The notes under the pieces were generated by a model. The model was not told the DNA's origin. It made no database searches and was given only the letters and a program-made list of their open reading frames with translations. Of a DNA stretch of 64,000 nucleotides, positions 3,115 to 64,000 are shown piece by piece (position 1 is the stretch's first letter; every line of letters begins with the position of its first letter). The stretch is from positions 2,294,001-2,358,000 of the forward strand of contig NZ_CP084296.1 in NCBI RefSeq assembly GCF_020271745.1, read 5' to 3'. The DNA comes from Providencia alcalifaciens (GTDB taxonomy: Bacteria; Pseudomonadota; Gammaproteobacteria; Enterobacterales; Enterobacteriaceae). The position numbers and the translations under genes were made by a program.

Positions 3115-4476
3115 TTAAGCGTGAACAATGGCTTCAAGCTCTGCTCGACTAACCACTTTTTTATCAATCTTGATATAAATACTCATCTCTTCAGCAATCA
3201 CAACCACATCAAGCACACCGTTTATGGCTTCTAACTGTTCCTGAAGCTTAGTGATGTTTTTAAAGCGATGCGGGAGAACCATACGAATACTGCTGACGTA
3301 AGGCGGTTGTTTCATGGTTAAGCTGATAACAAACCAGATAACACAAAGTAGTAATCCGCCGATAAATACGGTGCTGGCGCCTTCAAATTTATACAACCAA
3401 CCTCCCAGAATTCCGCCTAATGCTACCCCTAGAAATTGACTGGTGGAGTAGACACCCATGGCTGTACCTTTGTATCCGGCAGGGGCTTCTTTACTGATCA
3501 GGGACGGCAAAATGGCTTCCATCACGTTAAATGCAATAAAGAACAGTTGGATCCCTAAGAAGATAATCCAAAGCTGATGACCTGATTGCCATAAAACAAT
3601 TTCCGCCGCCGCTAAGAGTAAAATGCAGAACAGGAAAACCTGTTTCATTTTACGCTGTTTTTCTGCGTAAATAATAAAAGGAAGTACGCAAACAAAGGCA
3701 ACTAACATGGTAACTAAGTAAGCTTTCCAGTGATCTTTTGCCAAGTAACCGGCATCAGCCATGATCAAGGGGAGGGCGACAAAGCTGGACATTAGCAGTG
3801 TATGTAGGCTTAAAATCCCTAGATTCAATTTGAGAAGTTGAGAGTTAAGCAAAACGGCTTTTAAATTGCTTTTAACAAAAGCAGATTCACGGTTTACAAC
3901 ATGGTGAGTGTTATTAGGTACCACAAAGAGAGTAACGAAAATAGCGCCAACGGCTAATAAAGTGATTCCCCAAAATAAACCGCTTAAACCAACGGCATGG
4001 GTCACAATCGGTCCTAAAACTAAGGCAATAGCAAACGTTATACCAAAGCTAATACCTAAAAATGCCATCGCTTTTGTACGATTTTGTTCGCGAGTCAAAT
4101 CCGATAACAAAGCCATAACGGCAGCAGAGATAGCGCCAGCACCTTGTAAAGCTCGACCAATAATAATGCCCCAAATAGAATCGCTTAATGCGGCAATGGC
4201 ACTGCCAACAATAAATATCAGCAATCCAAAAATAATCAGTGGCTTACGACCAATACGGTCAGACATTAAACCAAAAGGGATTTGAAAAATAGCTTGGCTA
4301 AGCCCATAAATACCAATAGCCAAACCAATCAAAAACTCGTTAGCACCCTGTAAGTGCATCCCATAACTGGTGAGGATCGGGAGCACCATAAACATGCCGA
4401 GCATGCGAAGGGAGAATACGGATCCTAGCCCCCAAGTGGCTCGGAGTTCTAGGTGGGTCATTTTATTATCGTTCAT
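3115..4476 (-). CDS. yajR: MFS transporter YajR with C-terminal YAM domain
   Basis: The 453-residue protein is a 12-helix major facilitator (drug:H+ antiporter type) in the inner membrane. The conserved loop DRIGRKP follows helix 2. Residues from about 385 onward form a soluble ferredoxin-like YAM domain (ITKLQEQLEAINGVLDVVVI), the mark of YajR. Its substrate in E. coli is not settled. It is transcribed away from the ERIC element, convergent with yajQ. Confidence 0.92.
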   Translation of the reverse strand: MNDNKMTHLELRATWGLGSVFSLRMLGMFMVLPILTSYGMHLQGANEFLIGLAIGIYGLSQAIFQIPFGLMSDRIGRKPLIIFGLLIFIVGSAIAALSDSIWGIIIGRALQGAGAISAAVMALLSDLTREQNRTKAMAFLGISFGITFAIALVLGPIVTHAVGLSGLFWGITLLAVGAIFVTLFVVPNNTHHVVNRESAFVKSNLKAVLLNSQLLKLNLGILSLHTLLMSSFVALPLIMADAGYLAKDHWKAYLVTMLVAFVCVLPFIIYAEKQRKMKQVFLFCILLLAAAEIVLWQSGHQLWIIFLGIQLFFIAFNVMEAILPSLISKEAPAGYKGTAMGVYSTSQFLGVALGGILGGWLYKFEGASTVFIGGLLLCVIWFVISLTMKQPPYVSSIRMVLPHRFKNITKLQEQLEAINGVLDVVVIAEEMSIYIKIDKKVVSRAELEAIVHA

Positions 4477-4491
4477 AAATACTCTTCATAA

Positions 4492-4617
4492 ATACTCTTC
4501 ATATTTCGAGCTGTAGCTGTGTTGGCCGCGCTCACTAACTCAGGTCACATACTAATGTATGCTCCCTGAGATTAGCTTCACTTGCCGCCTTGCTACAACA
4601 CGAACTATTTTGAGTAT
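4492..4617. repeat. ERIC element (enterobacterial repetitive intergenic consensus)
   Basis: This 126-base imperfect palindrome runs from ATACTCTTCATATTTCGAG to the matching GAGTAT end and is centred on CATACTAATGTATG. The core ATGTATGCTCCCTGAGATT corresponds to the well-known ERIC1R primer sequence. The opposite arm, read on the minus strand as AGTATGTGACCTGAGTTAG, corresponds to ERIC2. The length also matches the classical 127-base ERIC. It lies between yajR and the cyo terminator. ERICs can fold into long hairpins in RNA; no function is implied here. Confidence 0.85.
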
Positions 4618-4647
4618 TAACTTTCAATGAGCTTAAATTATTCTTTT

Positions 4648-4671
4648 TATTTCGGGTTGTAGCTATGCTGG
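4648..4671. repeat. Truncated ERIC end fragment
   Basis: TATTTCGGGTTGTAGCTATG plus the following CTGG resembles the left end of the complete ERIC at 4501-4525 (TATTTCGAGCTGTAGCTGTG). It appears to be a terminal remnant of a second copy, about 30 bases beyond the first. Confidence 0.5.
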
Positions 4672-4784
4672 TATTAATTTAAATTTAAATCAATGAGTTA
4701 AGTGAATTTGCTATATGACAATGTTGGTTTATTGATAGCAGGCGGCTATTTAACCATAAAAATCATCACAAAAATATTCGCAGA

Positions 4785-4823
4785 CAAAGAAAAACGGCGG
4801 GAAGTTTGCACTCCCCGCCGTTT
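4785..4823 (-). terminator. Terminator of the cyoABCDE operon
   Basis: On the minus strand a 10-bp stem AAACGGCGGG/CCCGCCGTTT is followed by TTTCTTTGTC. It lies just downstream of the cyoE stop codon. Confidence 0.85.
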
Positions 4824-4853
4824 GAACGCATTTATTGTCAATGATGCAATAAA

Positions 4854-5741
4854 TTATCGGACTAACGCTATAACAGTATCGCTTGTAACGGTTGGGTCAA
4901 CTGACATCATCACACTTAGCGAGGTAATCGCTACGATGGAGAAGATGAACAGCTTACGAGCCCAAACTCGGTCGTCATTTTCGGTTTTGAAACCAGAAAT
5001 TGCCATACCAAGCCACCATAAGCTAACCGCAGCGCCGACAACCAGATATTTATAGCCCGCGTATCCGCTAATCGCTAACATTAATGTTGCGACCATAAAC
5101 GCAAGGATATACAAGAAGATATGCGTCTTAGCGACAGATATGCCCTTGATCACCGGTAACACAGGAATGTTCGCGGCTTTATAATCCTTAAAGCGGAAAA
5201 TTGCGATGGCATATGAGTGCGGCATTTGCCACAAGCTGAATATTAACAGCAGGATTAAGGCTCCAGCGTCAAATTCATTTGTGACAGCACAGTAACCAAT
5301 AACCGGTGGTGCTGCGCCAGATAGGCTGCCAATCAATGTGCCATATACTGACTTACGCTTCATGTACAGGCTGTATACGCCCACGTACACAATGAAACCA
5401 ATAAGTGCAAGTAGCATTGCCAGTGCATTGGCTGCTACAAGTAGCAGCACCATACCAGCAATACCTAATGCAGCAGCGTAAATCAGGCTAACTTTCGGGT
5501 CAATCAGCCCTTTAACTAAAGGGCGATTCTTGGTTCTTTCCATGATACGGTCAATATCACGGTCGATGTAGTTGTTAAATACACAACCAGAGGCAACGAC
5601 CAATGATACACCCAGCAAAGTCGCAATAAACAGCGGGTAATCAATTGACCCTTTAGAGGCCAGTAGAAAACCACCGATCACAGAAATCAAATTTCCGAAT
5701 ATAATTCCTGGTTTGGTCACTTGCAGGTATTGCTTAAACAT
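4854..5741 (-). CDS. cyoE: Protoheme IX farnesyltransferase (heme O synthase)
   Basis: CyoE is a polytopic UbiA-superfamily prenyltransferase that attaches farnesyl to heme B to make the heme O needed by cytochrome bo3. The 295-residue protein shows the Asp-rich prenyl-diphosphate site [12 protein letters not shown] near residues 57-68 and the second conserved block [13 protein letters not shown]. It is the last gene of the cyo operon, 12 bases after cyoD, and is followed by a strong terminator. Confidence 0.95.
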
Positions 5742-5753
5742 ATCGGCAACTCT

Positions 5754-6086
5754 TTAGTCGAGCATCATATTGATGTTCAGGTTGTACATAATCCACAGAG
5801 AGCCAATAACAACGATACCGACGATTAGCATAGTGAACAAGAATGCTACTAGGTTCCAGCGCTCATCTGATGATGTATTCATGTGCAAGAAACAGACTAA
5901 ATGTACAAGGATTTGTACGACAGCCATTCCAACAACAGTTGCTAGAATAACACCTTGTGAAGCCGTTCCATTCATCACCATCCAGAAAGGGATTACCGTC
6001 AGGATAACTGACAGAATAAAGCCAATCAGGTATGTTTTAACGCTACCGTGGCTTGCTCCGGTATGAGCATCTTTTGCATGACTCAT
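5754..6086 (-). CDS. cyoD: Cytochrome bo3 ubiquinol oxidase subunit IV
   Basis: This 110-residue protein has three predicted membrane helices (about residues 18-37, 45-65 and 80-103), the size and topology of CyoD, which assists assembly of the bo3 oxidase. The cytoplasmic N-terminus is His/Ala-rich. The start codon immediately follows the cyoC stop, indicating coupled translation. Confidence 0.94.
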
Positions 6087-6701
6087 TTAAATTGCCCCCA
6101 GCAGATAAACAACGGTAAATACACAGATCCAAACCACATCTAAGAAGTGCCAGAATAAGCTCAGGCAGTTCAGACGCGTTTTGTTCACCTCAGTTAGACC
6201 ACGGCGAGAAATTTGGATCATCATGATAATAATCCAAACTAAACCAGCAGTTACATGCAGACCGTGTGTTGCAACTAAAGCAAAGAAACCAGATAAAAAG
6301 CCACTGCGATCAGGACCGAAACCTTCAGCGATGAGTTCATGAAACTCATAAACTTCCATGATTACGAAGCCTAGACCTAATAGGAAAGTCGCAAACAACC
6401 ATAGGTTGACTGATGCGATTTTACCTTTATGCATGGCAATCATTGCGAAACCATAGGTGATACTACTGACTAGTAGTAAGAAAGTTTCGCCTAATACGAA
6501 CTTAAGACTGAAGATATCTTTACCTGCAGGGCCGCCAGCCGTTCCATCAGCAAGAACAACATAGGTAGCAAATAAACAAGCAAACAGAATTAAGTCGCTC
6601 ATGATATACAGCCAGAAACCAAAGACTTTCGTTCCGCCTGCATCATGGTGCCCATGCTCAGCATGGGCTGTATTATGGTTAGTCATTGTATTAGTTGACA
6701 T
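6087..6701 (-). CDS. cyoC: Cytochrome bo3 ubiquinol oxidase subunit III
   Basis: The 204-residue protein has five membrane helices and the family motifs [24 protein letters not shown] and [14 protein letters not shown]. It is a heme-copper oxidase subunit III without metal centres. The N-terminus ([15 protein letters not shown]) matches that of E. coli CyoC. It overlaps the end of cyoB by 11 bases. Confidence 0.95.
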
Positions 6702-8682
6702 CGTTCACACCTGCCTTACGCAATTCTTCAAAGTGCTTATTCTCGATTTGCTCGATTTCAGCCACAGGTACGTAGTAATCAACATCTTCGTCGAAGCTTT
6801 TTGCAATCCAAGTCACGATCATTCCACCGAAACCAATAATTGCGAGCCACCAGATGTGCCAGATCATTGCGAAACCAAGAATCAAGCTAAATCCAGCGAT
6901 AATAACGCCTGCGCCTGTATTTTTTGGCATATGAATTTCTTCATATGAAGTTGGTTTCTTGTAAGCGATACCTTTCTCTTTCATATCCCACCAAGCATCA
7001 CGTGTTTGAACCGGTGGTTCAATAGCGAAGTTGTAGAATGGAGCCGGAGAAGAAGTTGACCACTCAAGTGTACGTCCACCCCATGGGTCACCGGTTAAAT
7101 CACGGTTTTCATGACGATCACGGATACTGACAATAATTTGGATAACTTGGCAAGCAATACCCAGAGCAATCAGACCAGCACCACACGCAGCTGCCACTAA
7201 CATACCGTGGTAAGCAGGGTCGATATTCTGGCTCAGACGACGGGTCATACCCATAAATCCAAGGATATATAACGGCATGAATGCTAAGAAGAAACCAATG
7301 ATCCATAACCAGAAGGCACGAACACCCCATTTCTCATTTAGTGTGAAGCCGTAAGCTTTCGGGAACCAGTAAGTCATACCTGCGAAGCATCCGAATACCA
7401 CACCACCGATAATAACGTTATGGAAGTGGGCAATCAGGAACAGGCTATTGTGCAGAACGAAGTTCGCACCTGGAACCGCTAACAGAACACCAGTCATACC
7501 ACCAACAGAGAAAGTGATGATAAAACCGATAGTCCATAACATCGGTGATTTGAACTCGATACGACCTTGGTACATGGTGAACAGCCAGTTGAAAATCTTA
7601 ACCCCTGTAGGGATTGCGATAATCATCGTAGCGATACCAAAGAAGGCGTTAACGTTCGCACCTGAACCCATCGTAAAGAAGTGGTGTAACCATACGATGA
7701 AGGACATAACGGTGATAACGATGGTTGCCCACACTAATGAGGTATAACCAAATAGACGCTTTTTCGAGAAGGTTGCTGCAATTTCTGAGAACACACCGAA
7801 CACTGGCAGAACAAGGATATACACCTCAGGGTGACCCCAAGCCCAAATTAGGTTGATGTACATCATCATGTTGCCACCCATATCATTCGTGAAGAAATGG
7901 GTACCTAAATAACGGTCTAAAGTCAGCAGGGTGAGTGTTACAGTCAAGATTGGGAATGCTGCAACAATCAGAACGTTGGTACAAAGCGCAGTCCAGCTAA
8001 ATACAGGCATTTTCATCATTGACATACCCGGCGCACGCATACGGATAATAGTCGCAATAAAGTTAACGCCAGTTAAGAGTGTCCCGATACCAGATATCTG
8101 GAGACTCCAAAGCCAGTAATCGACCCCAACCCCAGGGTTGTATTCCAAACCTGATAGTGGTGGATATGCTAACCAACCTGTTTGTGCGAATTCACCTACC
8201 CCTAATGAGATGTTGATTAATACAACACCCACTACGAAGAACCAGAAGCTCAGGGAGTTAAGGAATGGGAATGCAACGTCACGGGCACCAATTTGCAGAG
8301 GAACAACTAAGTTCATCAGACCAACAACAAATGGAGTTGCCATGAAGAAAATCATGATAACGCCGTGCGCTGTAAAGATCTGGTCATAGTGGTGAGGGTT
8401 TAAGAAACCTTCTTGACCCGCTGAAGCCAGCACTTGCTGACCACGCATCATGATAGCATCCGCGAATCCACGGAATAACATCACCATCGCAACGATGATG
8501 TACATAATACCAATTTTTTTATGGTCAACAGAGGTTAACCACTCTTTCCACAGCCATTTCCATTTTCCGAAATAGGAGATTGCACCGACTAAGCCAAGTC
8601 CACCGAGGACAATGGCAATCAGTGTAACAACGATAATCGGTTCATGAAGTGGAACTGCGTCCAGTGTTAATTTTCCAAACAT
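6691..8682 (-). CDS. cyoB: Cytochrome bo3 ubiquinol oxidase subunit I
   Basis: This is the catalytic heme-copper subunit: it oxidises ubiquinol, reduces oxygen to water and pumps protons. At 663 residues it equals the E. coli length. The metal ligands are all present: [11 protein letters not shown] (low-spin heme His), [14 protein letters not shown] (CuB His and the cross-linked Tyr), HHFFTMG (two CuB His), and [12 protein letters not shown] (heme O and low-spin heme His). It follows cyoA by 4 bases in the cyoABCDE operon. Confidence 0.97.
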
Positions 8683-8686
8683 GCCC

Positions 8687-9679
8687 TTATTCCTCAGCGC
8701 CTGCAGGAGCGTTATGGCTCATATGCATTGATTGACCTGTAGATTCTTGCGCTTGAGCAGTATTGCCCATCTGCATAGAATGATTTGCTTCATTATTAGT
8801 ATCTACAGGAGCGTGACCTTTATGGTGCTCATGACCAAACTTCATAATGATGTCTTCATAAAGTTTAGGTTTCACGCTAGAGAAGTAGGTAACAGGAACG
8901 TTCATGCTAGGTTTAGCAACTTCGTCGAATGCCTGCATCGTATCCATAGTTTTAGGTGATGCTTTTACTTTCTGTACCCACTCATCGAAGCCTTGGCGAT
9001 CTGCTGTTGCAATAGCATTGAACTTCATATCTGAGAACCCGTGACCGCTATAGCTGGCTGAGAAGCCTTTATAGGTACCTGGTTCGTTAGCGATTAAGTG
9101 AAGTTTTGTTTGCATGCCTGCCATCGCGTAGATCTGTCCACCTAAAGATGGGATGAAGAATGAGTTCATCACAGAATCAGACGTGATTTTGAAATTTACA
9201 GGAACACCAGTAGGGAATGCGATTTCATTGACTGTAGCAATACCTTGATCTGGATAGATAAAGATCCATTTCCAGTCAGCTGAAATAACTTGAATGGTAA
9301 CAGGTTCCTGATCACTAACTAATGGCTGATACGGGTCCAGCTCATGAGTCGTCTTCCAAGTGATAGCACCCAGAATAATGATAATAATGATAGGAACTGT
9401 CCAGCAGACTAACTCAATTTTGTTAGAGTGAGCCCAGTTAGGACGATAAGTAGCTGACTTATTGGACTCACGATATTTTACAGCGAAGATAAACGCCATA
9501 AAAATAACAGGAATCACAACAAGGAGCATCAAGCCGATTGCAATAAGAATCAGCTCTTTTTGTTTTACGCCAACGGCGCCTTTAGGATCCATCAACACCA
9601 TATCGCAACCACCTAATAATAAGGCTGCTGCAACAAGTGAGATTGCTCCAATGCTTTTTTTGTAGTTCATAAGTCTCAT
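8687..9679 (-). CDS. cyoA: Cytochrome bo3 ubiquinol oxidase subunit II (lipoprotein)
   Basis: CyoA is the periplasm-facing subunit II. It has a lipoprotein signal ending in LLLGGC, two membrane helices, and a cupredoxin domain that lacks the CuA ligands, as in quinol oxidases. The ATG at 9679 ([11 protein letters not shown]) is preferred over one 17 codons upstream because it aligns with the E. coli start MRLRKYNKSLG and gives 330 residues. The C-terminal tail is His/Met-rich ([21 protein letters not shown]). First gene of the operon; in E. coli the operon is oxygen-regulated by ArcA and FNR, but no clear sites were identified here. Confidence 0.94.
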
Positions 9680-9730
9680 CCACGACCCCAAATGACAAGA
9701 ATCTAATTGTCGTTTCATCAGTGCGGGCAT

Positions 9731-10105
9731 TTTACGGTAAGGTTGTGCGAGTGTAAATGATTGTAAGGCAAAGAAACGGAAATGTTAGCTTTTTATGTTA
9801 ATATGATCACATGTAAAGCTTTTGCTTCTAAAAGGTTAAAGTTGCTGCTAATTATAGGTATGTTTTGATAAAACAGTATGAATACTAAATTATCTTGGTA
9901 ATTTTTCAAAGAAAAATATATACAAAATTGACAAAAAAATATGGAAACTGCTTGGATTGTTAAGAAAGTTAGTAGGGGAAATTACTGATTACATTGCCGA
10001 TAAAGCCAAATTGATGACTTTACCGGCAAAATAATACAGAAAAATTGTTATATTTTTGAAACTAAAGGAAATATGTTAAAAAAATAAACAATATTTTCGT
10101 AGTTA
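9731..10105. other. AT-rich intergenic stretch between cyoA and the Tsx-like gene
   Basis: There is no credible gene. It must hold the cyo promoter (near 9740-9850, minus strand), but no hexamer pair was clear enough to name. It also contains a 12-bp stem-loop at 9994-10029 (listed separately). Confidence 0.6.
9994..10029. other. Stem-loop downstream of the Tsx-like gene
   Basis: TTGCCGATAAAG and CTTTACCGGCAA form a 12-bp stem with one mismatch and a 12-base loop, 77 bases after the Tsx-like stop codon. There is no T-run on either side, so it is either an RNA 3' stabiliser or a weak terminator. Confidence 0.5.
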
Positions 10106-46901: not shown

Positions 46902-49118
46902 ATGAACATTATTAATAACCTATCTTTAGTTACCAAGCGTTTGGGTTATACCCTTTCACCGGAAATTTTATTAGCACAAACTAAACGCACAGAATCGAAA
47001 TCTTTCGATTATGCGTCGCTGGTGAATGTGCTGAACTCCCATCAATTTGATAACCAGATCATTGAAATCGATCTGCATAAGATCCCGACGATTGCAGCGC
47101 CGTTTCTGGTGCTGTTGGCAAACAATGAATCGGTGGTGATCAGCAAAATTGAAGATAGCGAAAATGGACGCTATTTTGAGATCTTAACAGAAGAAGGCTT
47201 ACGTCAAACATTAAGCGTGCAAGATCTGGCAGTGAACTACAGCGGCTACAGCTGGTTTATTAAACGTAATATTCGCTCAGAAACCCGTTCAGAAATTGAT
47301 AAATACGAAACCAGTGGCTTCTGGAAAGTGATTTGGCGTTATAAAAAATATTACTACCAAGTGATCATTGCATCGTTTGTGATCAACTTATTAGCGTTAA
47401 TCAGTTCCCTGTATGTGATGAACGTGTATGACCGCGTGATCCCAAATCAAGCTTACGAAACCTTATGGGTACTGACTATTGGTGTTGTGCTGGCAATTGG
47501 CTTTGAATTTCTGGCCAAAATGCTGCGATCTTACCTATTAGATATCGCAGGGAAAAAAGCAGACATCGTGATCAGTGCCATGCTATTCCACCGCGTGATG
47601 GGGATCCGCCTTGATAAACGCCCAGCGTCATCGGGATCGTATGCCAACAATTTACGTGACTTCGAATCCATTCGTGAGTTTATGACCAGCGCGAGTTTAC
47701 TCGCTCTCGTCGATCTGCCGTTTATTTTGCTGTTTATCGGCGTGATCAGCATGATTGGTGGTTACCTAGCATTGGTGCCACTGACCATTATCCCGATTGT
47801 GGTGATCGCTGGCATTGTGATCCAAAAGCCACTGGCGAAAGGGATCAACGCCTCAATGAAAGAGACTTCTCAACGCCAAGGCTTAGCGGTGGAATCCATC
47901 GAAGGGATCGAAACCTTAAAGTTAAATAACGCGGTGAATTGGGCGCAACAACGTTGGGAAATACTCACAGAGAAAACGGCATTTTCATCCATTGCAGTGC
48001 GCAATCTAACTAACTTTATGGTCAACTTCAGTGCGGCGATGCAGCAGCTCAATACCGTGGGTTTAGTGTGTGTAGGGACTTACTTGATCCACGCAAACGA
48101 TGTGAACTCGCGTATTACAATGGGGGCGCTGATCGCCAGCGTGATCTTATCCGGTCGTGCGCTAGCACCGCTTGGGCAAATTGCAGGGCTGGCAACACGT
48201 TTCCAATCAGCGCGTATGGCATTAGCTGGTGTGCGCAATATCTTTAGCCGTCCTATCGAACGCGAAGATCATAAAAAATACATTTCACCGACTGCAGTTC
48301 ACGGGGCATTACGACTGGCGAATGTGACTTATCAATATAGTAAAGATGGGCAGCCTGCATTAAACAACATTAACTTAGAGATCAAAGCGGGGGAGAAAGT
48401 CGCGATCCTCGGAAAAATCGGTGGTGGGAAAAGTACATTACTGAAGCTACTGACAGGCTTGTATGAGCAACAGCAAGGGAATATCAGCTTAGATGACCTC
48501 GATATTCGCCAAATTGACCCGATTTTCCTCAGAAGCAAAGTCGGCATGCTGACGCAAAAGCCGCGTTTATTCTTCGGAACCCTGCGTGAAAACTTGGATT
48601 TAGCACGTCTTGATGGCTATTCCAGCGATGACGATTTAGTGCGCGCGCTCAAACGCTTCCAGCTTGATAAAATTATTCGTCAGCACCCTGCAGGGCTTGA
48701 TATGCCCCTTGGTGAAGATGGTTTAGGGCTTTCAGGTGGACAAAAACAGATGGTGGCACTGGCACAGTTAACCTTGCATAACCCAAATGTGGTGTTACTG
48801 GATGAGCCAACCACGGGCATTGATGTGGATACCGAAAAATTGGTACTGGATGCGTTAGAAACGTGGACAAAAGATAAAACGCTGATTGTCGTCACTCACA
48901 AATTACCAATTTTACGTTTAGTTGACCGCATTATCGTGATGGATGAAGGCAAAATTTTAATTGATGGACCGAAGCAGAAAGTCTTAAAAGCGTTAGGACA
49001 AACGGAGCAAGCCACTGGCACAGTTACCACAGATAAACCCACTCCACAGCCTGCGCCACAAGTGCGAGTTGTTTCACAGGTTAGACACGTAATTAATAAA
49101 GAAGAAGGGGCGATTTAA
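46902..49118 (+). CDS. Type I secretion ABC transporter (LapB/HlyB type)
   Basis: The 738-residue inner-membrane exporter has an N-terminal C39-like domain (about 1-125) without the catalytic Cys, as in HlyB/LapB; such domains dock the substrate rather than cleave it. Six membrane helices span about 150-420, and the ATPase has Walker A GKIGGGKST (about 503-511), signature LSGGQKQ, Walker B VVLLDEPT and H-loop VTHKL. It is coupled to the HlyD-like gene (one base apart). The cargo is almost certainly the upstream adhesin. Confidence 0.93.
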   Translation: MNIINNLSLVTKRLGYTLSPEILLAQTKRTESKSFDYASLVNVLNSHQFDNQIIEIDLHKIPTIAAPFLVLLANNESVVISKIEDSENGRYFEILTEEGLRQTLSVQDLAVNYSGYSWFIKRNIRSETRSEIDKYETSGFWKVIWRYKKYYYQVIIASFVINLLALISSLYVMNVYDRVIPNQAYETLWVLTIGVVLAIGFEFLAKMLRSYLLDIAGKKADIVISAMLFHRVMGIRLDKRPASSGSYANNLRDFESIREFMTSASLLALVDLPFILLFIGVISMIGGYLALVPLTIIPIVVIAGIVIQKPLAKGINASMKETSQRQGLAVESIEGIETLKLNNAVNWAQQRWEILTEKTAFSSIAVRNLTNFMVNFSAAMQQLNTVGLVCVGTYLIHANDVNSRITMGALIASVILSGRALAPLGQIAGLATRFQSARMALAGVRNIFSRPIEREDHKKYISPTAVHGALRLANVTYQYSKDGQPALNNINLEIKAGEKVAILGKIGGGKSTLLKLLTGLYEQQQGNISLDDLDIRQIDPIFLRSKVGMLTQKPRLFFGTLRENLDLARLDGYSSDDDLVRALKRFQLDKIIRQHPAGLDMPLGEDGLGLSGGQKQMVALAQLTLHNPNVVLLDEPTTGIDVDTEKLVLDALETWTKDKTLIVVTHKLPILRLVDRIIVMDEGKILIDGPKQKVLKALGQTEQATGTVTTDKPTPQPAPQVRVVSQVRHVINKEEGAI

Positions 49119-49119
49119 A

Positions 49120-50355
49120 ATGGAGAGTTATGGTAAAGCGCCAAAAGAGCATCGCACTTTTTCCAGTGACTTTTCTCATGATCTAGAATCCGTGATGAGA
49201 AAAGAGCGCAGTAACTTACTGTTTTTGCCTATTATCTTTCTGGCGTTGTTACTGACGATTTTTGTGGTCTGGGCCTATAACAGTCACTTAGAAGAGATCA
49301 TTCGTGGGCAAGGAACCATCATTCCAAGTAGCCGTGAACAAGTGATCCAGAGTATTGACCCTGGCAATATCCAAGAAATGTATGTTAAAGAGGGCGATAT
49401 TGTTGAAAAAGGGCAAATTTTGCTGAAGTTGGATGATGCGCGCAGTATGGCATTATTGCGTGAAAGCCAAGCGCGAGTGCAAAACCTTGAAGCTATTTCA
49501 GCGCGTTTGCAGGGAGAATCTCGCAACGAACTTCCTGATTTTTCAAAGATAGTTGATCAAGAATTAGTCGCGCGTGAAACCAACGCCTATAACGCGAAAA
49601 AAACGCAGCGTGACCAAGCTATTGCAGGCTTACGTCAAAGCAAAGGATTATTAGACAGAGAAATTGCTATCACCAAACCGCTGGCGAAAGAAGGGTTAGT
49701 CTCCAATGTGGAAATTCTGCGTATGGAAAGACAGTCCGTTGAATTAGCGACACAAATTAACGAACGCATAAATAACTACCTTGCGGAAGCAAACGCTGAA
49801 TTGGTGAAAGTGGAATCGGAGCTGGATCAAGCAGAAGAGACAATGAGCATGCGTAAAGATCCAGTCACTCGCTCGGAGATCCGCGCACCCGTTCACGGCA
49901 TCGTAAAAAACATTAAGATCAATACCATCGGTGGCGTGGTGAATACAGGGCAAGACATCCTTGAGATCATTCCCCTCGATGACAAATTGATGGTGGAAGC
50001 TTATATTCGTCCACAGGATGTGGCTTTCTTAAGACCGGGAATGCCAGTCGTGGTTAAAGTGACCGCCTATGATTACGCTATTTATGGTGGCCTAAATGGG
50101 GTTGTGAAATTAATCAGCCCAGACACCTTAAGCAATGATACTCGCCGCAGTGAGTTAAAGCTCAATCCCGATGAGACGTTCTACCGCATTCTTGTCGAAA
50201 CGGATACCAATTACTTGTTAGACAAAAATAACCAGAAAATGGAAATTATACCGGGAATGGTGGCATCGGTAGATATCAAAACGGGTGAAAAAAGTGTGTT
50301 TGATTACCTAATTAAACCGATCACACGGATGAAACAGGCGATGACAGAGCGTTGA
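49120..50355 (+). CDS. HlyD-family membrane fusion protein of the adhesin T1SS
   Basis: The periplasmic adaptor of 411 residues has one membrane helix (about 33-54, LLFLPIIFLALLLTIFVVWA), a lipoyl/barrel-sandwich half motif IQSIDPGNIQEMYVKEGDIV, a long coiled coil (about 105-245), the second half RAPVHGIVKNIKINTIGGVV, and a C-terminal beta barrel. This is the LapC/HlyD layout. Last gene of the operon, followed by a terminator. Confidence 0.92.
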   Translation: MESYGKAPKEHRTFSSDFSHDLESVMRKERSNLLFLPIIFLALLLTIFVVWAYNSHLEEIIRGQGTIIPSSREQVIQSIDPGNIQEMYVKEGDIVEKGQILLKLDDARSMALLRESQARVQNLEAISARLQGESRNELPDFSKIVDQELVARETNAYNAKKTQRDQAIAGLRQSKGLLDREIAITKPLAKEGLVSNVEILRMERQSVELATQINERINNYLAEANAELVKVESELDQAEETMSMRKDPVTRSEIRAPVHGIVKNIKINTIGGVVNTGQDILEIIPLDDKLMVEAYIRPQDVAFLRPGMPVVVKVTAYDYAIYGGLNGVVKLISPDTLSNDTRRSELKLNPDETFYRILVETDTNYLLDKNNQKMEIIPGMVASVDIKTGEKSVFDYLIKPITRMKQAMTER

Positions 50356-57628: not shown

Positions 57629-57886
57629 TTACAGATTAATGGGCAGTGTCACCGAAGGATTTCTACGCTCCAAAAAGTAATTTAAATCACACTGAAGCAC
57701 ATTGGCAAAAATGCATAATCGGTGGATTGTAAAATTTTGAGTTCCACGCTCATAGCGAGAAATCTGTTGTTGGCTTAAGCCAGTTTTCTTACCAAGAATA
57801 CTGGCGCTCCAGCCTAATAAGAGTCGGCGTTTACGAACTTTTGCACCAATATCGGTATTGGAGATTTGATTGTCGTAGAGAGTCAT
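57629..57886 (-). CDS. MrpJ-like XRE-family fimbrial operon regulator
   Basis: The 85-residue protein is almost entirely a Cro/C1-type helix-turn-helix: IGAKVRKRRLLLGWS, then LGKKTGLSQQQISRYERG, then FTIHRLCIFANVLQCDLNYF. The SQQQISRYERG recognition helix is characteristic of MrpJ of Proteus mirabilis and its paralogues, which repress flagellar genes when fimbriae are made. It is the last gene of the operon, 33 bases after the oligosaccharyltransferase-like gene, the same terminal position that mrpJ has in the mrp operon. Confidence 0.85.
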   Translation of the reverse strand: MTLYDNQISNTDIGAKVRKRRLLLGWSASILGKKTGLSQQQISRYERGTQNFTIHRLCIFANVLQCDLNYFLERRNPSVTLPINL

Positions 57887-57919: not shown

Positions 57920-59308
57920 TTATGCAAATGAGAAAATATTGGTGTGAAAGAAAGATTGACCATTAAACAAATTTAATCCAATAATAAAAACGCTGAGGCC
58001 AATAATGAAAGTGCTAAAGCTAAATAATAAAGACAAGTGCTTGTTAATATAAAAGCTGGATTGTTCTTTTAATGAAAATGATGCATCTGCAAATGATAGG
58101 AATAATATTATCATTCCCCAATGTAACACCGATTGTAAAAATGGGTGCTCTAGATTGCTATTAATAACCACAGGTGTTAATGCTAAAACCAAGGATATGG
58201 AATATCCGTTTCCATTCTTCTTATATTTAATGATTGACTGATAAATAACATATAACCCACCCGTTATTATTAGCGACATAAAAATAAGATTAATAAACCC
58301 ACCAGTCATAATCCAACGCAATATTTCATTATAAACATGTGGTACAATATAATTTTCAGAACTTAAAAATGGGAGCTGGCTTTTCTCCATGCTCGCATTA
58401 AGTATTAACGGTTGTTCCCAAACTTCAGCTGACGGAGATATAAACAATGAAATTGAAAATCGTAACATTTGCTTAAGGTGAAAGCGGTTGATTATCTCAC
58501 TGTCAATATACTTTGGGCATAGCTGAATAAGGTAAACGCCAATAAATACAGCAACGGCAATAATGAAATAACTAGCGCTCACCCTCACTTTATTTTTCTG
58601 ATAAAACAAACAGATAAAAATAAATGCACACATTGCGAAACTCAATGTCGTCGTGATGGATTGAAGTACAATCAGTGTCACCGTGAACAAGAAAATACAG
58701 ATACTTAATAGTGTTATGCGGCATTTTTCTTGAATGAGCGATGTGAGTTTAAATTGTGATAACACAAGGGTCATCAACGAAAACATGCAGCTCATCGCCA
58801 TGTTAACCGACAAAATGGTAATTTGTTGTGTCAAACCATATGACCGCATATCGGTTGCAAAATAAAAAATAGTAGTTTCAAAAAAGTATTGATAAATAGT
58901 AAATAAGCACTGAATGACATTAATCGCGATAAAGCAATAAATACAGAAAGATTGAATTAACCACTTTTCTCGTATTTGCAATCCGACAATATACAGCATG
59001 ACTCCAGTACTGACTCCAGACCAATACCAAAATATAATATTACGGCTCTCTTTTAGATAAAAAAGATTAATGCTTAATATCATTAAGGCTAAACAAAAAC
59101 ATAATGCCGGCGCTGTAATGAAAATTCGATTTTTTCTATAAAATACGGTAAATGCAATAATGGAAATAATTAATGCAATTGCTAACCAGCTAATAATATT
59201 TTGAGGCAGTGATTGCCTTAAGCTACCTAAATTATCAATATATATTATACTGGCGAGATTCCAAATAATAAAAATACTAATAAACACAGCACGAGAAAGC
59301 ATAATCAT
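57920..59308 (-). CDS. PglL/Wzy-superfamily O-oligosaccharyltransferase-like membrane protein
   Basis: The 462-residue protein has about 12-13 hydrophobic helices and one large non-cytoplasmic loop (about 266-335). Landmarks fit PglL-type O-oligosaccharyltransferases and the Wzy_C superfamily. These are RSYGLTQQITILS (155-167; family R-x-F/Y-G-x-x-x-Q-P), NRFHLKQMLRFSISLFISPS (274-293; the RLELWRxA-like segment before the loop), PHVYNEILRWIMTGG (323-337; the H-N-E-hydrophobic-L motif with catalytic His) and NSNLEHPFLQS (383-393; the HS-LEYP-like motif). Such enzymes transfer lipid-linked glycan to Ser/Thr of periplasmic proteins. The gene lies inside a chaperone-usher operon between tip adhesin and MrpJ-like regulator, and is visibly more AT-rich than its neighbours. 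An O-antigen polymerase is the main alternative. Confidence 0.62.
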   Translation of the reverse strand: MIMLSRAVFISIFIIWNLASIIYIDNLGSLRQSLPQNIISWLAIALIISIIAFTVFYRKNRIFITAPALCFCLALMILSINLFYLKESRNIIFWYWSGVSTGVMLYIVGLQIREKWLIQSFCIYCFIAINVIQCLFTIYQYFFETTIFYFATDMRSYGLTQQITILSVNMAMSCMFSLMTLVLSQFKLTSLIQEKCRITLLSICIFLFTVTLIVLQSITTTLSFAMCAFIFICLFYQKNKVRVSASYFIIAVAVFIGVYLIQLCPKYIDSEIINRFHLKQMLRFSISLFISPSAEVWEQPLILNASMEKSQLPFLSSENYIVPHVYNEILRWIMTGGFINLIFMSLIITGGLYVIYQSIIKYKKNGNGYSISLVLALTPVVINSNLEHPFLQSVLHWGMIILFLSFADASFSLKEQSSFYINKHLSLLFSFSTFIIGLSVFIIGLNLFNGQSFFHTNIFSFA

Positions 59309-59319
59309 AGTGTTTTACT

Positions 59320-59354
59320 GCATGTTAATTATAAAACAGCATGTTAATTATAAA
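59320..59354. repeat. 19-bp tandem duplication at the adhesin/transferase junction
   Basis: GCATGTTAATTATAAA occurs at 59320-59335 and again at 59339-59354, a direct tandem repeat with a 19-base period that covers the adhesin stop codon and the spacer before the next gene. Confidence 0.85.
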
Positions 59355-60415
59355 TAAGTCGCAATTAACCACGCATTGCCAGTGTATTTTCCGGGCTCAG
59401 CATCTTGTCCATAAATGTGGCTTTCGATTTCAATATTTTTCACTTTATCAATTGTGGTCATGATGGTTTTACCGCGTTCTTTACTCTCTGCATCGTACAG
59501 TAATAACTCAGAGTAAATCGTGTTAGTGCCCGATTTCATCGGCACACGCTTTTGCGGATCGTTATCCATAACATAATCTAAGGTGAACTTCACATTAACC
59601 CCTTGGCTTCTGTCACATTGGTAAGTCGCAGTGCGGGTTTGTTTACTATCAAACTCAATGGCGTTCAGTGTATTGTGGTTGATATTTAGATTATCAATAT
59701 TGGCTTTACAGTTTGATGGGTAGTTAATCACCGACTGAGTTAAATCCAGTTTAACACTCGCTTTATCCGCTGGAACGAACACATCAGGTGTGCCCGGATA
59801 TTGGAACATTCGGGTATAGCCTGCAATCATTGCTGGCGGAATAACAACTTTGCCATCTATCGGAATATCTTTCACATAAATACGGACTTCAAAAGGGAAT
59901 TGAACAGTGAAGAACTCAGCGTTTAATGGCCCCATTTCTTCAGAAGAACATCCACGCCCAGAAATATTTTTCCAACCCTGAGTAATTCCATTATCTGAAT
60001 ACAGTGTGAAGTAAGTATTTGCATTAATTTTATAAGCGGTGAGCCCTTTAATGGTAAAGCCAGCTTCTGGCACATAAGAAAAGACGCGATGAAAGGCATA
60101 GTTCCACGACAGTCCATTTTGGTAGTTACCCTCTAAAAAATTCACTTTGCAATACACCATACCGTAAGGCTGTGATGAAGTTTCATCGATCACAATGCCC
60201 TCTTTATTTGGCGGAGCAACAGAATAGTATTTCTCGCCATTGCTTCCAATTGTCGGTGTACTCGCGATGACCGAGTTATTGGAGACAAGATTCATTTTAT
60301 AGCCACCACCACTGGATGAGTAGCGAGTTAATCCATGGGAAACTTGGCTATAGAGAAACAGTGACATCAGCATGGTTACTAATGAAATTAGCGAAGTTTT
60401 AGTTGTTTTTTTCAT
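59348..60415 (-). CDS. Two-domain fimbrial tip adhesin (MrpH-like position)
   Basis: The 355-residue protein has a signal peptide (cleavage near VSHG|LTRY), an N-terminal receptor-binding region of about 200 residues (aromatic-rich, with paired Cys at about 89 and 155), and a C-terminal pilin domain. The pilin domain starts near DLTQSVINYPSNCKANIDNL, has a second Cys in ATYQCDRSQG, and ends with the beta-strand GKYTGNAWLIATYL, which would be completed by the chaperone. Twice the length of the other pilins, it should be the tip adhesin, the role of MrpH. The mature N-terminus is Ser/Gly-rich (RYSSSGGGY). Ligand unknown. Confidence 0.82.
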   Translation of the reverse strand: MKKTTKTSLISLVTMLMSLFLYSQVSHGLTRYSSSGGGYKMNLVSNNSVIASTPTIGSNGEKYYSVAPPNKEGIVIDETSSQPYGMVYCKVNFLEGNYQNGLSWNYAFHRVFSYVPEAGFTIKGLTAYKINANTYFTLYSDNGITQGWKNISGRGCSSEEMGPLNAEFFTVQFPFEVRIYVKDIPIDGKVVIPPAMIAGYTRMFQYPGTPDVFVPADKASVKLDLTQSVINYPSNCKANIDNLNINHNTLNAIEFDSKQTRTATYQCDRSQGVNVKFTLDYVMDNDPQKRVPMKSGTNTIYSELLLYDAESKERGKTIMTTIDKVKNIEIESHIYGQDAEPGKYTGNAWLIATYL

Positions 60416-60430
60416 TGTCGTTACCTAACT

Positions 60431-60943
60431 TTAAAGATAATCAATCATGACTGACAGTGCCGCACTAAACGGGCCGACTTTAAGTGTTTCAGGAACTTGA
60501 TTCGTAACTAATTGTGACTGCAAGGTCAATGTGGCGGTATCACCACTCACTGATGGGAAGATAGGCTCCCATTTCAGTAGATTGATAGCGGTATTTCTAT
60601 TGGCTTGGGAAAAACGGATCCCTAAGCCTTGGATTGTGGTGCTTAGTACGGTTTCGTTATTAATCGTGAGGGTCGAACCCTCTTTTGGGGACAAATAAAC
60701 CCGTAAGTTTTTACGCAGATCGCATTGTTTAATTAGGATCCCAAAGTTGTATTTTTCTTCTGTTATGCGATCTAATGCGACATTTTGAAAATTCACATAC
60801 AGCTCTTTATCGCCATTTTCATTGGTAATCACACAGGATGGACGCACTAATGTGGTTTCCAACGTAATTAAAATATCAGCCAGTGAAAAGCTGCTCATTA
60901 GCAGGCAAATTGCCCCTAAAAAACCGGATATTTTCATCTGCAT
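60431..60943 (-). CDS. Minor fimbrial subunit (MrpG-like position)
   Basis: The 170-residue pilin has a signal peptide (ISGFLGAICLLMSSFSLA), the two conserved cysteines (RPSCVITNEN and LIKQCDLRKN) and the C-terminal beta-zipper strand FSAALSVMIDYL needed for chaperone binding. It lies 15 bases upstream of the tip adhesin and probably forms part of the tip fibrillum or an adaptor. Confidence 0.82.
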   Translation of the reverse strand: MQMKISGFLGAICLLMSSFSLADILITLETTLVRPSCVITNENGDKELYVNFQNVALDRITEEKYNFGILIKQCDLRKNLRVYLSPKEGSTLTINNETVLSTTIQGLGIRFSQANRNTAINLLKWEPIFPSVSGDTATLTLQSQLVTNQVPETLKVGPFSAALSVMIDYL

Positions 60944-61869: not shown

Positions 61870-62598
61870 CTAGGGTGTGACTGTGCACTGCGATGCTTGG
61901 CACTTAAACGCAAGTGAAGGTTTTCCACCATAATCATTGATATAAGTGAGATATGGCGTTGCGAACTTCGCTGACTTTAGGTTATGGGTTGATTTTGGTG
62001 GCACCATAACGGCATCAAAGTCACTCTGTTCAGACTGCTTTTGGCTGTTACCAATACCTATAACGGTCAGGTAAAAACTTGTTGGGTTATTCAGCTGATA
62101 ACCATTGGCTGTCGGAGTTAATGTCACCTGTTTTGCCCACTCTTTTTTACTATCAGCCACAATCGCTTCTGGGCGATAAAACAGTTTTACACGGCTTTGT
62201 AGGGCGATTTGTAGAACACCTGCTTCTGTTGATTTTGGTGGAATTTCGCGCAAGTTATAGTAAAACAGAGACTCTCTATCCTGTGGTAATTTACTGATAT
62301 CAGGAGCCGTACTTAAACGAACTAAGCTGGTGGATTTTGGCTCCATACGCTGAATCGGCGGTGTTGCGATAATCGGGCCTGCTTCCAGTTTTTTCTCTGA
62401 CGCATCTTCTAACCATGACTGCGCTAAGTAAGGTAGTTCAGCGTTATCATTGCGAATAGTGATGTTAATAGACTGCTGATCACCATCAAAAATAATACGA
62501 GTACGATCAAGTGTAACTGCGGCGTAAGTGGCGCCCATTGCACCGATAGAGGTCAATAAGACACTGGTGCGAAGTAAATTAAAAAGATTTGATTTCAT
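61870..62598 (-). CDS. Periplasmic fimbrial chaperone (PapD/MrpD-like)
   Basis: The 242-residue protein has a signal peptide (GAMGATYA|AVTLDRTRIIF) and the two-domain PapD fold. The conserved Arg in LDRTRIIFDG and Lys in LQSRVKLFYRPEAI anchor the subunit C-terminus, and the segment NLREIPP is the family signature before the G1 strand. It follows the usher by 12 bases and chaperones the pilins encoded downstream. Confidence 0.93.
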   Translation of the reverse strand: MKSNLFNLLRTSVLLTSIGAMGATYAAVTLDRTRIIFDGDQQSINITIRNDNAELPYLAQSWLEDASEKKLEAGPIIATPPIQRMEPKSTSLVRLSTAPDISKLPQDRESLFYYNLREIPPKSTEAGVLQIALQSRVKLFYRPEAIVADSKKEWAKQVTLTPTANGYQLNNPTSFYLTVIGIGNSQKQSEQSDFDAVMVPPKSTHNLKSAKFATPYLTYINDYGGKPSLAFKCQASQCTVTP

Positions 62599-62610: not shown

Positions 62611-64000
62611 CTAATGACAAATTAATACAGGGTAGCTTTCGGCACTGTTTTTAAACTCAGTGACTTGCGTGCTGCATTGCAATTTATTTCCCCAGTACAG
62701 GTTAAGCAGGTCATTTGGCATCACGCCGACAATCCATGTGATCCCTTGCTCACCTACAATGCCGAGCTCAATGTTATTTTTATTACGCACACTGGCACCA
62801 AACGGTGGATAAGTGCCGTCTGCCAGTTTTAAACGGGCAAAGGTTTTTTCCCCTTGAATAACATTCAGGCTGCGATAACCGATGGCTCCACGAGTTAGTG
62901 TGGCTTCGGTTACACTCTCTAACGCTTCGATATTGCTCGGTAATTTACTGGTATTAATTGATGCTGTTGTTTTGCGATAGCTACTCACGTTAGGGAGCAC
63001 AGTTAAGCCAAAGCGGTTAGTTTTATAAACGCCACCGTTTAATGGCACGTTGCTTGCTCCCGGTGTTTCAACGACTAAGCGCGTTCCACCATAGGCTGCC
63101 TGATGCAGCGCAATTCCTTCTTTGACCAATGTGATCCCGCCGTTAATCGACCCACCAATGGTGTGGTACTCGTTAGGAACATAACTGGCATTGGCCGAGA
63201 GTGATGCCGTTGGGAAGTTCTGGCTCAAATAACCACTGAAACTAGTTTGTGAGTCCTGATCCTGCCCCGTTTGGTAACCCAAGTTCAGGTTATAACTACG
63301 CTGATCGCTGTAGCCGCTATAGCCCACGTTATGAGTTGAAGAGCGGCGTCCATTTTGGTCGCGTGTATAGCCTTCAGAGAAACTCATGCTGCTACCCATG
63401 GTGAGGGGTACAGTGACATACAGCGTAATGGCATCATCCTGATATCCCGCTCTTTTAGAACGTGTCGCAGATGCGGTTAAACTGATGTTTTTTAACCCTA
63501 AATAGGCAATATTGAAGGCGGTGTTGATATAGGCCCCAAATTGCTCTTCCGTTTGGCTATTCCAATACGTGTTGTACTGGTAATTTCCACCCAATGAGAA
63601 CTCGTCAAAATATTTATTAATATTGACCTGATAGCTCTCTTTGTGTGCTTGGGTTTCAGTCCCCGTACGGCGTTCGTCCAACGTTTGTTGCAATGAACGA
63701 TAGGTTTCATCCGAGAATCGATAGCCTGCGAAGGTAATGTCGGTTCGCGCCTCATCAAACGATTTCGAGTAACTTAAACGGTAACTGCGTCCTGTTAGGG
63801 TATCGTTCAGTAACTTTGCATGGGACTGTGTTATGTCAAATGACAAGCTCCCGAAGGTAAATAAATCACGTCCAAAACCGGCTGAAAATGCTTGGTAGTT
63901 TTTGGATAAAATCGACCCACCATAAATCGACCAAATATTATTAAGTCCATAAGAAAGTTCACCCGATGCGGTCATATCTCCTTCGAGGTGACGGCCATCG
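62611..64000 (-). CDS. Fimbrial usher, C-terminal part (partial)
   Basis: The 5' end lies beyond base 64000; the frame is open to the window edge. About 460 residues of the outer-membrane usher are visible: the second half of the beta barrel (LSYGLNNIWSIYGGSILSKN, FGRDLFTFGSLSFDITQSHA), the typical GGTRLVVETPGASNVPLNGG and TNRFGLTVLPNVSSYRKTT, and the C-terminal plug-like domains ending in the Cys pair of KLQCSTQV and PVLICH. It assembles and exports pilin subunits received from the chaperone. Confidence 0.95.
   Translation of the reverse strand, partial: DGRHLEGDMTASGELSYGLNNIWSIYGGSILSKNYQAFSAGFGRDLFTFGSLSFDITQSHAKLLNDTLTGRSYRLSYSKSFDEARTDITFAGYRFSDETYRSLQQTLDERRTGTETQAHKESYQVNINKYFDEFSLGGNYQYNTYWNSQTEEQFGAYINTAFNIAYLGLKNISLTASATRSKRAGYQDDAITLYVTVPLTMGSSMSFSEGYTRDQNGRRSSTHNVGYSGYSDQRSYNLNLGYQTGQDQDSQTSFSGYLSQNFPTASLSANASYVPNEYHTIGGSINGGITLVKEGIALHQAAYGGTRLVVETPGASNVPLNGGVYKTNRFGLTVLPNVSSYRKTTASINTSKLPSNIEALESVTEATLTRGAIGYRSLNVIQGEKTFARLKLADGTYPPFGASVRNKNNIELGIVGEQGITWIVGVMPNDLLNLYWGNKLQCSTQVTEFKNSAESYPVLICH

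What the first reader, a model, noticed from the sequence alone, without database searches (positions are those of the whole stretch)
57920..59308. PglL-like O-oligosaccharyltransferase embedded in a chaperone-usher fimbrial operon
Seen: a polytopic protein with the order of PglL/Wzy_C landmarks (R-x-Y-G..Q near 155, a RLELWR-like segment near 275, PHVYNEILRW near 323, LEHPF near 386) lies in line with, and only 39 bases after, a two-domain tip adhesin. It is followed after 33 bases by an MrpJ-like regulator. Known: PglL-type enzymes glycosylate type IV pilins and other periplasmic proteins en bloc, and subunits of chaperone-usher fimbriae pass through the same periplasm. Inference: this operon may encode a self-contained glycosylated fimbria, with the tip adhesin or a minor pilin as acceptor. 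The Ser/Gly-rich mature N-terminus of the adhesin and the small MrpE-like protein are candidate sites. I do not know of a described chaperone-usher operon with its own O-OTase, so it may be undescribed.
Basis: partly seen in the sequence, partly recalled or inferred. Interest (0 to 1): 0.78.

Follow-up and report, generated by a model that had tools for sequence, protein, structure and literature searches.

The report
Degenerate sugar-transferase relative in fimbrial operon
A fimbria-building gene set in Providencia carries a membrane protein descended from enzymes that attach sugars to proteins; intact versions of it sit beside the same type of fimbria genes in many related bacteria, but this copy has lost key active-site residues although selection still preserves it.

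Summary
The 462-residue protein at 57920-59308(-) is real: 39 bases after an MrpH-like adhesin gene, 33 before a small helix-turn-helix gene. Alone it matches no Pfam or PDB family, but its distant relatives are PglL-type O-oligosaccharyltransferases. In one locus fimbria and PglL genes are followed by glycan-synthesis genes. In 33 aligned relatives nine PglL residues are invariant.

The window's copy differs. It lacks two active-site arginines, the catalytic histidine (Tyr here, Phe in one relative), other PglL residues and most of the C-terminal domain. Yet dN/dS is about 0.05, and it occurs in exactly the 15 of 24 Providencia genomes with the orthologous adhesin.

My reading: a descendant of fimbria-linked PglL, now probably non-catalytic or altered, kept as part of this fimbria. 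Ten paper searches listed no description of PglL linked to chaperone-usher fimbriae. Glycosylation itself is untested.

The parts
57920..59308 (-). PglL-descended polytopic membrane protein, 462 aa, most of the C-terminal domain missing, active site degenerate
58643..58663 (-). QSITTTL, where most PglL relatives have QSRxGWL (Arg equivalent to Nm PglL R224 is absent; it is also absent in some relatives)
58298..58342 (-). PHVYNEILRWIMTGG, where relatives have HPHNEILLWWVEGG; the His next to Asn (Nm PglL H349) is Tyr326, His324 is kept
58139..58153 (-). LEHPF, equivalent of LEYPF; Glu387 and Pro389 (Nm PglL E404, P406) are kept
57629..57886 (-). HTH_3 regulator, 85 aa, MrpJ-like by position (name recalled)
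59348..60415 (-). MrpH-like putative tip adhesin, 355 aa
   Evidence: MrpH_C E 5e-5, below cut-off; orthologue found in the same 15 of 24 genomes as the PglL-like gene
60431..60943 (-). minor fimbrial subunit
   Evidence: PF00419
60948..61484 (-). minor fimbrial subunit
   Evidence: PF00419
61477..61842 (-). small MrpE-like protein (by position, name recalled; no Pfam match)
61870..62598 (-). periplasmic chaperone
   Evidence: PapD_N, PapD_C
62611..63999 (-). outer-membrane usher, cut by the window edge (829 aa when complete)
   Evidence: Usher, PapC_C; L093

Best explanation
The gene descends from a PglL-type O-oligosaccharyltransferase that accompanies chaperone-usher fimbriae across the enterobacterial family and, by inference, glycosylates their subunits in the periplasm. 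In the Providencia clade that carries this MR/P-like operon, the protein lost most of the C-terminal Wzy_C_2 part and the two active-site arginines examined; in the window's sub-clade it also lost the catalytic histidine. It is probably expressed with the operon (inferred from gene spacing) and is held by strong purifying selection (shown). Most likely it is now a non-catalytic inner-membrane partner of this fimbria: it keeps the fold and probably the ability to bind fimbrial subunits or a lipid-linked glycan, and helps assembly or quality control without transferring sugar in the canonical way. Shown: homology, context, residue loss, selection. Inferred: loss of activity and the partner role.
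For: Homology: 42 of 392 genomes match the protein; hhalign of the Providencia clade against 33 relatives gives 100%, E 6e-46, 22% identity over 447 columns. Of 41 aligned members (7 of the Providencia clade), 36 match Wzy_C, 36 Wzy_C_2 and 32 PglL_A. PDB WaaL 7tpg matches the family profile at E 5.6e-15. Residues equivalent to Nm PglL Q178, N180, R298, G316, G318, H349, H400, E404 and P406 (list from PMC3643930, section 15; column mapping mine) are invariant in 33 of 33 relatives. In the window these are Q, T, H or L, V, E, Y, N, E, P. Of 43 columns conserved in at least 30 of 33 relatives, 35 align to a window residue and 18 of those are retained. Selection: dN/dS 0.054 among the 6 genomes without the HN histidine, lower than the adhesin's 0.066. 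Co-occurrence: the same 15 of 24 Providencia genomes carry the gene and the orthologous adhesin.
Against: Arg155, Gln162, Glu387, Pro389 and the first His of the HxHN pair are kept in the window; 15 of 15 genomes keep at least one of the two His, and Arg275 lies close to the missing R298 position in the six window-like genomes. Glu387 corresponds to PglL E404, whose mutation dramatically reduced PglL activity (PMC12800693, passages). The R224 position is not invariant among relatives either. So a remodelled active site cannot be excluded. The residue calls rest on 22% identity alignments and one register is uncertain (H277 or L278). The structure prediction failed (mean pLDDT 34). A weak promoter-like match spans the gap before the gene (59328-59301, 9 of 12; fewer such matches in the region than in shuffles). 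No expression data.
Confidence: 0.5

Rival explanations
1. It is still an active O-oligosaccharyltransferase with a remodelled active site (His324 or Tyr326 replacing the usual base, Arg155 and neighbours holding the pyrophosphate) and glycosylates a subunit of this fimbria.
For: Found in the same 15 of 24 genomes as the adhesin orthologue; dN/dS 0.05-0.10; Glu387, Arg155, Gln162 and one His of the HxHN pair kept in the window. Relatives with all nine PglL residues mostly sit at the end of, or next to, fimbrial operons.
Against: The R224 and R298 equivalents are absent in 15 of 15 and the H349 equivalent in 6 of 15 (one has Phe, which cannot act as a base); G316, G318 and H400 equivalents are absent in the window; most of the C-terminal domain is missing. 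The proposed acceptor serines are not conserved.
Confidence: 0.3
2. It does something unrelated to glycans, such as a membrane sensor or regulator coupled to the downstream HTH gene.
For: It lies beside the HTH gene in all nine Providencia loci (some are the same genome). One relative lies beside an annotated LuxR-type regulator (S. entomophila).
Against: The homology and the 24-genus association of PglL genes with fimbriae point to an ancestral glycan role.
Confidence: 0.12
3. It is a decaying pseudogene or hitch-hiker.
For: Long stem branch (2.25 substitutions per site), loss of conserved residues, AT-rich (33% GC).
Against: Open frame of at least 456 aa in 15 of 15 genomes that have the adhesin orthologue; dN/dS 0.054 in the window's sub-clade, as strict as the adhesin.
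Confidence: 0.05

Closest known systems
PglL-type O-oligosaccharyltransferases (Neisseria PglL, Acinetobacter PglL and PglS)
   Same: Family by profile comparison, order of motifs, Glu and Pro of the EYP motif, location beside genes for secreted filament subunits (type IV pilins in 21 of 31 in PMC3643930)
   Different: Partner is a chaperone-usher fimbria, not a type IV pilin; in the window the active-site Arg, Arg and His and most of the C-terminal domain are missing
WaaL O-antigen ligase (PDB 7tpg)
   Same: Same superfamily; R191, R265 and H313 of 7tpg (numbers counted by me on the alignment) align with the QSR, invariant Arg and HN positions of the relatives
   Different: Not in a lipopolysaccharide locus; Pfam Wzy_C does not reach the window protein; the own genome has a separate Wzy_C protein
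MR/P fimbriae of Proteus mirabilis
   Same: Order of usher, chaperone, minor subunits, MrpH-like adhesin, then a small HTH regulator (order recalled)
   Different: No membrane protein between mrpH and mrpJ in MR/P (recalled); no PglL-like gene was found near the second MrpH-like operon of this genome either (L205)
Sef fimbria of Serratia entomophila plasmids
   Same: A plasmid fimbrial operon of this species (L039), possibly Sef, is followed by a PglL gene with all three Pfam domains; sefA-J made fimbriae in E. coli (PMC10758657, passages)
   Different: That the PglL neighbour acts on the fimbria is untested; the words O-antigen and ligase do not occur in that paper's main text; I did not match L039 gene by gene to sef

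Membership tests
PglL O-oligosaccharyltransferase (window protein) | Wzy_C / PglL_A / Wzy_C_2 profile match | tested here: not met
   0 families for the window protein; with E up to 1, 6 of 13 clade members match Wzy_C (best E 2.4e-4) and 6 Wzy_C_2 (best 0.0034)
PglL O-oligosaccharyltransferase (window protein) | Catalytic His next to Asn (Nm H349) | tested here: not met
   Tyr326
PglL O-oligosaccharyltransferase (window protein) | Active-site arginines R224 and R298 | tested here: not met
   I218; H277 or L278
PglL O-oligosaccharyltransferase (window protein) | Common ancestry with PglL | tested here: met
   hhalign 100%, E 6e-46
PglL O-oligosaccharyltransferase (window protein) | Transfers glycan to protein | not testable with these tools
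   needs mass spectrometry
PglL O-oligosaccharyltransferase (fimbria-linked relatives) | PglL motifs and conserved residues | tested here: met
   nine residues invariant in 33 of 33 aligned; Wzy_C 36, Wzy_C_2 36, PglL_A 32 of 41 members
PglL O-oligosaccharyltransferase (fimbria-linked relatives) | Glycosylates the adjacent subunit | not testable with these tools
   no glycoproteomic data
Chaperone-usher fimbrial operon | Usher, PapD-like chaperone and fimbrial subunits in one strand-uniform cluster | tested here: met
Chaperone-usher fimbrial operon | MrpH-type adhesin | tested here: inconclusive
   MrpH_C E 5e-5, below cut-off
WaaL O-antigen ligase | Location in a lipopolysaccharide locus | tested here: not met
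   flanked by fimbrial genes and, beyond the HTH gene, a GNAT-like frame and glycolytic genes (gene names by eye)

The most novel reading that the evidence does not exclude
In the enterobacterial family, PglL oligosaccharyltransferases are dedicated partners of chaperone-usher fimbriae, some with their own glycan-synthesis cluster, so that a class of glycosylated chaperone-usher fimbriae exists; in Providencia one such enzyme has been turned into a conserved pseudo-transferase serving the same fimbria.
Probability: 0.45. Interest if true: 0.82.

Novelty: new variant of a known kind. Interest (0 to 1): 0.62.

Why it matters
Chaperone-usher fimbriae are major adhesins of enteric bacteria and, as far as the listings of ten searches of the held library show, are not described as substrates of a dedicated oligosaccharyltransferase. 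The association (57 of 67 loci, 24 of 26 genera, against 0 of 40 controls) makes the question directly testable by mass spectrometry. A conserved degenerate member would be a useful case of a pseudo-oligosaccharyltransferase and could show what the protein does besides catalysis.

Tried and rejected
Structure prediction with the only five sequences allowed (window plus L032-L035) gave mean pLDDT 34 and was not used for a fold search. A scan of viral contigs with the family alignment found no relative. The profile of the Providencia clade alone found no PDB chain. Low-complexity Ser/Thr/Pro/Ala/Gly stretches in genes of 24 other loci were listed but not compared with a control, so no acceptor is claimed. 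The Ser/Gly-rich adhesin N-terminus as acceptor was rejected: SSSGGG is AGAGGG, APYGG or TNTGG in some orthologues. The placement of the Providencia clade in the tree (sister L150, support 0.83) is not trusted because of its long stem. The promoter and terminator scan found fewer promoter-like sites than shuffles and no terminator-like site between adhesin and PglL-like gene. An usher census scored at most three or four ushers per genome and listed only part of the places, so it was used only to choose control genomes. Whether the Yersinia 'pilin' neighbours in Table 1 of PMC3643930 are in fact chaperone-usher genes was not tested.

Full report
Observation. The window (one contig of 4.2 Mb; 94% identical orthologue in Providencia rettgeri PROV023) holds a 462-aa frame at 57920-59308(-), 39 bases after an adhesin gene and 33 bases before an HTH gene, at the end of an operon with usher, chaperone, a small protein and two fimbrial subunits.

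What family. The protein alone matches nothing in Pfam, NCBIfam or the PDB. Searching 392 genomes of the family with it gave matches in 42; four genomes have a close match (the own genome and three of the same genus, 64-94%), the other matches are 20-34% identical over part or most of the protein. The distant relatives are mostly 500-620 aa. Of 41 aligned members (7 of the Providencia clade), 36 match Wzy_C, 36 Wzy_C_2 and 32 PglL_A. Their profile finds WaaL (7tpg, E 5.6e-15) with Arg, Arg and His-Asn in register. The Providencia clade aligns with 33 relatives at E 6e-46. So the lineage is PglL.

Fimbrial context is a family trait. I fetched stretches, mostly 20 kb, around 67 distant PglL places (the distant hits and the over-cut-off hits of the Wzy_C_2 search) and looked for ushers with a profile built from this set. 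57 of 67 have an usher in the stretch, mostly upstream on the same strand, 1.5 to 6.7 kb away. The ten without are L049, L050, L052, L053, L066 (truncated gene), L080 (contig of 5.8 kb), L089, L144 (fimbrial-like frames about 6 kb upstream, by N-terminus), L157 (truncated beside a transposase-like frame) and L159; at least six of these are intact PglL genes with no usher within about 9 kb, so the link is not absolute. By genus handle, 24 of 26 have at least one positive. Controls: 40 loci with WaaL-type Wzy_C proteins, taken one per genome in list order where the frame is under 500 aa and the genome has ushers; 0 of 40 have an usher nearby (L172 is only 5.7 kb; Fisher P 2.5e-20). Related genomes are not independent and some genomes give several places. 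A second control, five PglL loci from four other families of the order (five of the 109 genomes over the cut-off; 12 kb each), has 0 of 5 ushers; four of the five have a uvrA-like frame and two of them also an aminotransferase-like frame next to the gene (my reading of N-termini), the 'EA' context listed in PMC3643930. Named examples beside fimbrial genes are Klebsiella aerogenes NCTC10006, Serratia entomophila AGR_220 and S. marcescens pQC19; the Winslowiella plasmid copy (the same record as L159) has no usher nearby. Six Providencia genomes carry a second, distant copy, and all six lie beside an usher (L078, also one of the 67, and L200-L204).

A hint of function. In L155 the fimbrial operon and PglL gene are followed by genes matching NTP_transferase, WavE, ABC2_membrane, ABC_tran and HAD_2; L154 shows the same series and L157 part of it by their N-termini. 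A glycan-making cluster next to fimbria and transferase is what a self-contained glycosylated fimbria would look like. This is inference.

The window's copy is degenerate. PMC3643930 (passages; section 15 read) lists residues conserved in PglL. With my column mapping, Q178, N180, R298, G316, G318, H349, H400, E404 and P406 are invariant in 33 of 33 relatives. In the window they are Gln, Thr, His or Leu (register uncertain), Val, Glu, Tyr, Asn, Glu and Pro. The R224 position is Ile; it is not invariant among relatives either (QSQ or QSL in some). Across 15 Providencia orthologues: R224 position Ile/Val in 15, no Arg at R298 in 15, H349 position His in 9, Tyr in 5, Phe in 1; the preceding His is kept in 14; Glu of E404 in 14. 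The proteins end before most of the C-terminal domain of relatives.

But it is kept. dN/dS (Nei-Gojobori, ratio of sums over pairs) is 0.054 among the six genomes without the HN histidine and 0.098 among eight others (three saturated pairs and one pair with dS under 0.02 left out), against 0.066 and 0.108 for the adhesin (G401, broken, left out; three saturated pairs and one close pair left out). The fifteenth genome, G405, was in neither group. Several dS values exceed 1, so ratios are approximate. The gene is found in exactly the 15 of 24 Providencia genomes that have the orthologous adhesin at 54% or more; the frame is open for 456 aa or more in all 15. MrpH-like paralogous adhesins (35-41%) occur without it; in the same genome one lies at L205 with no PglL-like gene detected in the 20 kb.

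Mechanism. I favour a non-catalytic or altered membrane partner of this fimbria, derived from a subunit-glycosylating enzyme. The strongest argument against is that Glu387, Arg155 and one His persist. No usable structure could be obtained.

Literature. Ten full-text searches listed no paper whose title or shown abstract start links PglL or an O-antigen-ligase-like gene with chaperone-usher fimbriae; the listed papers were not opened except PMC3643930, PMC12800693 and PMC10758657, subscription papers and preprints are not covered, and searches returned nothing. and asked narrower questions. PMC10758657 (passages) describes the Sef fimbria and does not contain the words O-antigen or ligase in its main text.

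Noticed in passing
L155:8639-17557 and L154:4250-11187, L157:5295-10587: PglL gene followed by a series of glycan and ABC-transporter genes (NTP transferase, WavE, ABC-2, ABC ATPase, HAD by Pfam in L155; the same series by N-termini in L154 and part of it in L157), a possible self-contained glycosylated-fimbria locus (an usher was found in L154 and L155, not in L157).
   Followed up: partly
L205 (G000:C1:1860000-1879900), 4136-9963: Second MrpH-like fimbrial operon of the same genome without a detected PglL-like gene: a natural control.
   Followed up: partly
L036 (NZ_OU659131.1): The record is called a 489-kb plasmid but carries fbaA, pgk, epd and tkt, so it may be a chromosome fragment; its annotation covers the PglL-like frame by a partial protein and a short antisense one.
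   Followed up: no
L039:11581-12180, L054:10317-10883, L047:12897-13508, L045:8236-8829: A LuxR-type regulator gene (annotated in L039; frames with look-alike N-termini in the others) lies downstream of the PglL gene, directly or after one gene.
   Followed up: no
window 46902-50355: Frames that look like a type I secretion ABC transporter and HlyD-like adaptor next to the glycolytic cluster; annotated so in P. alcalifaciens (L036), where the neighbour is a large Ig-like domain protein.
   Followed up: no
window 57920-59308: The gene has about 33% GC against 41-47% in most windows around it.
   Followed up: partly
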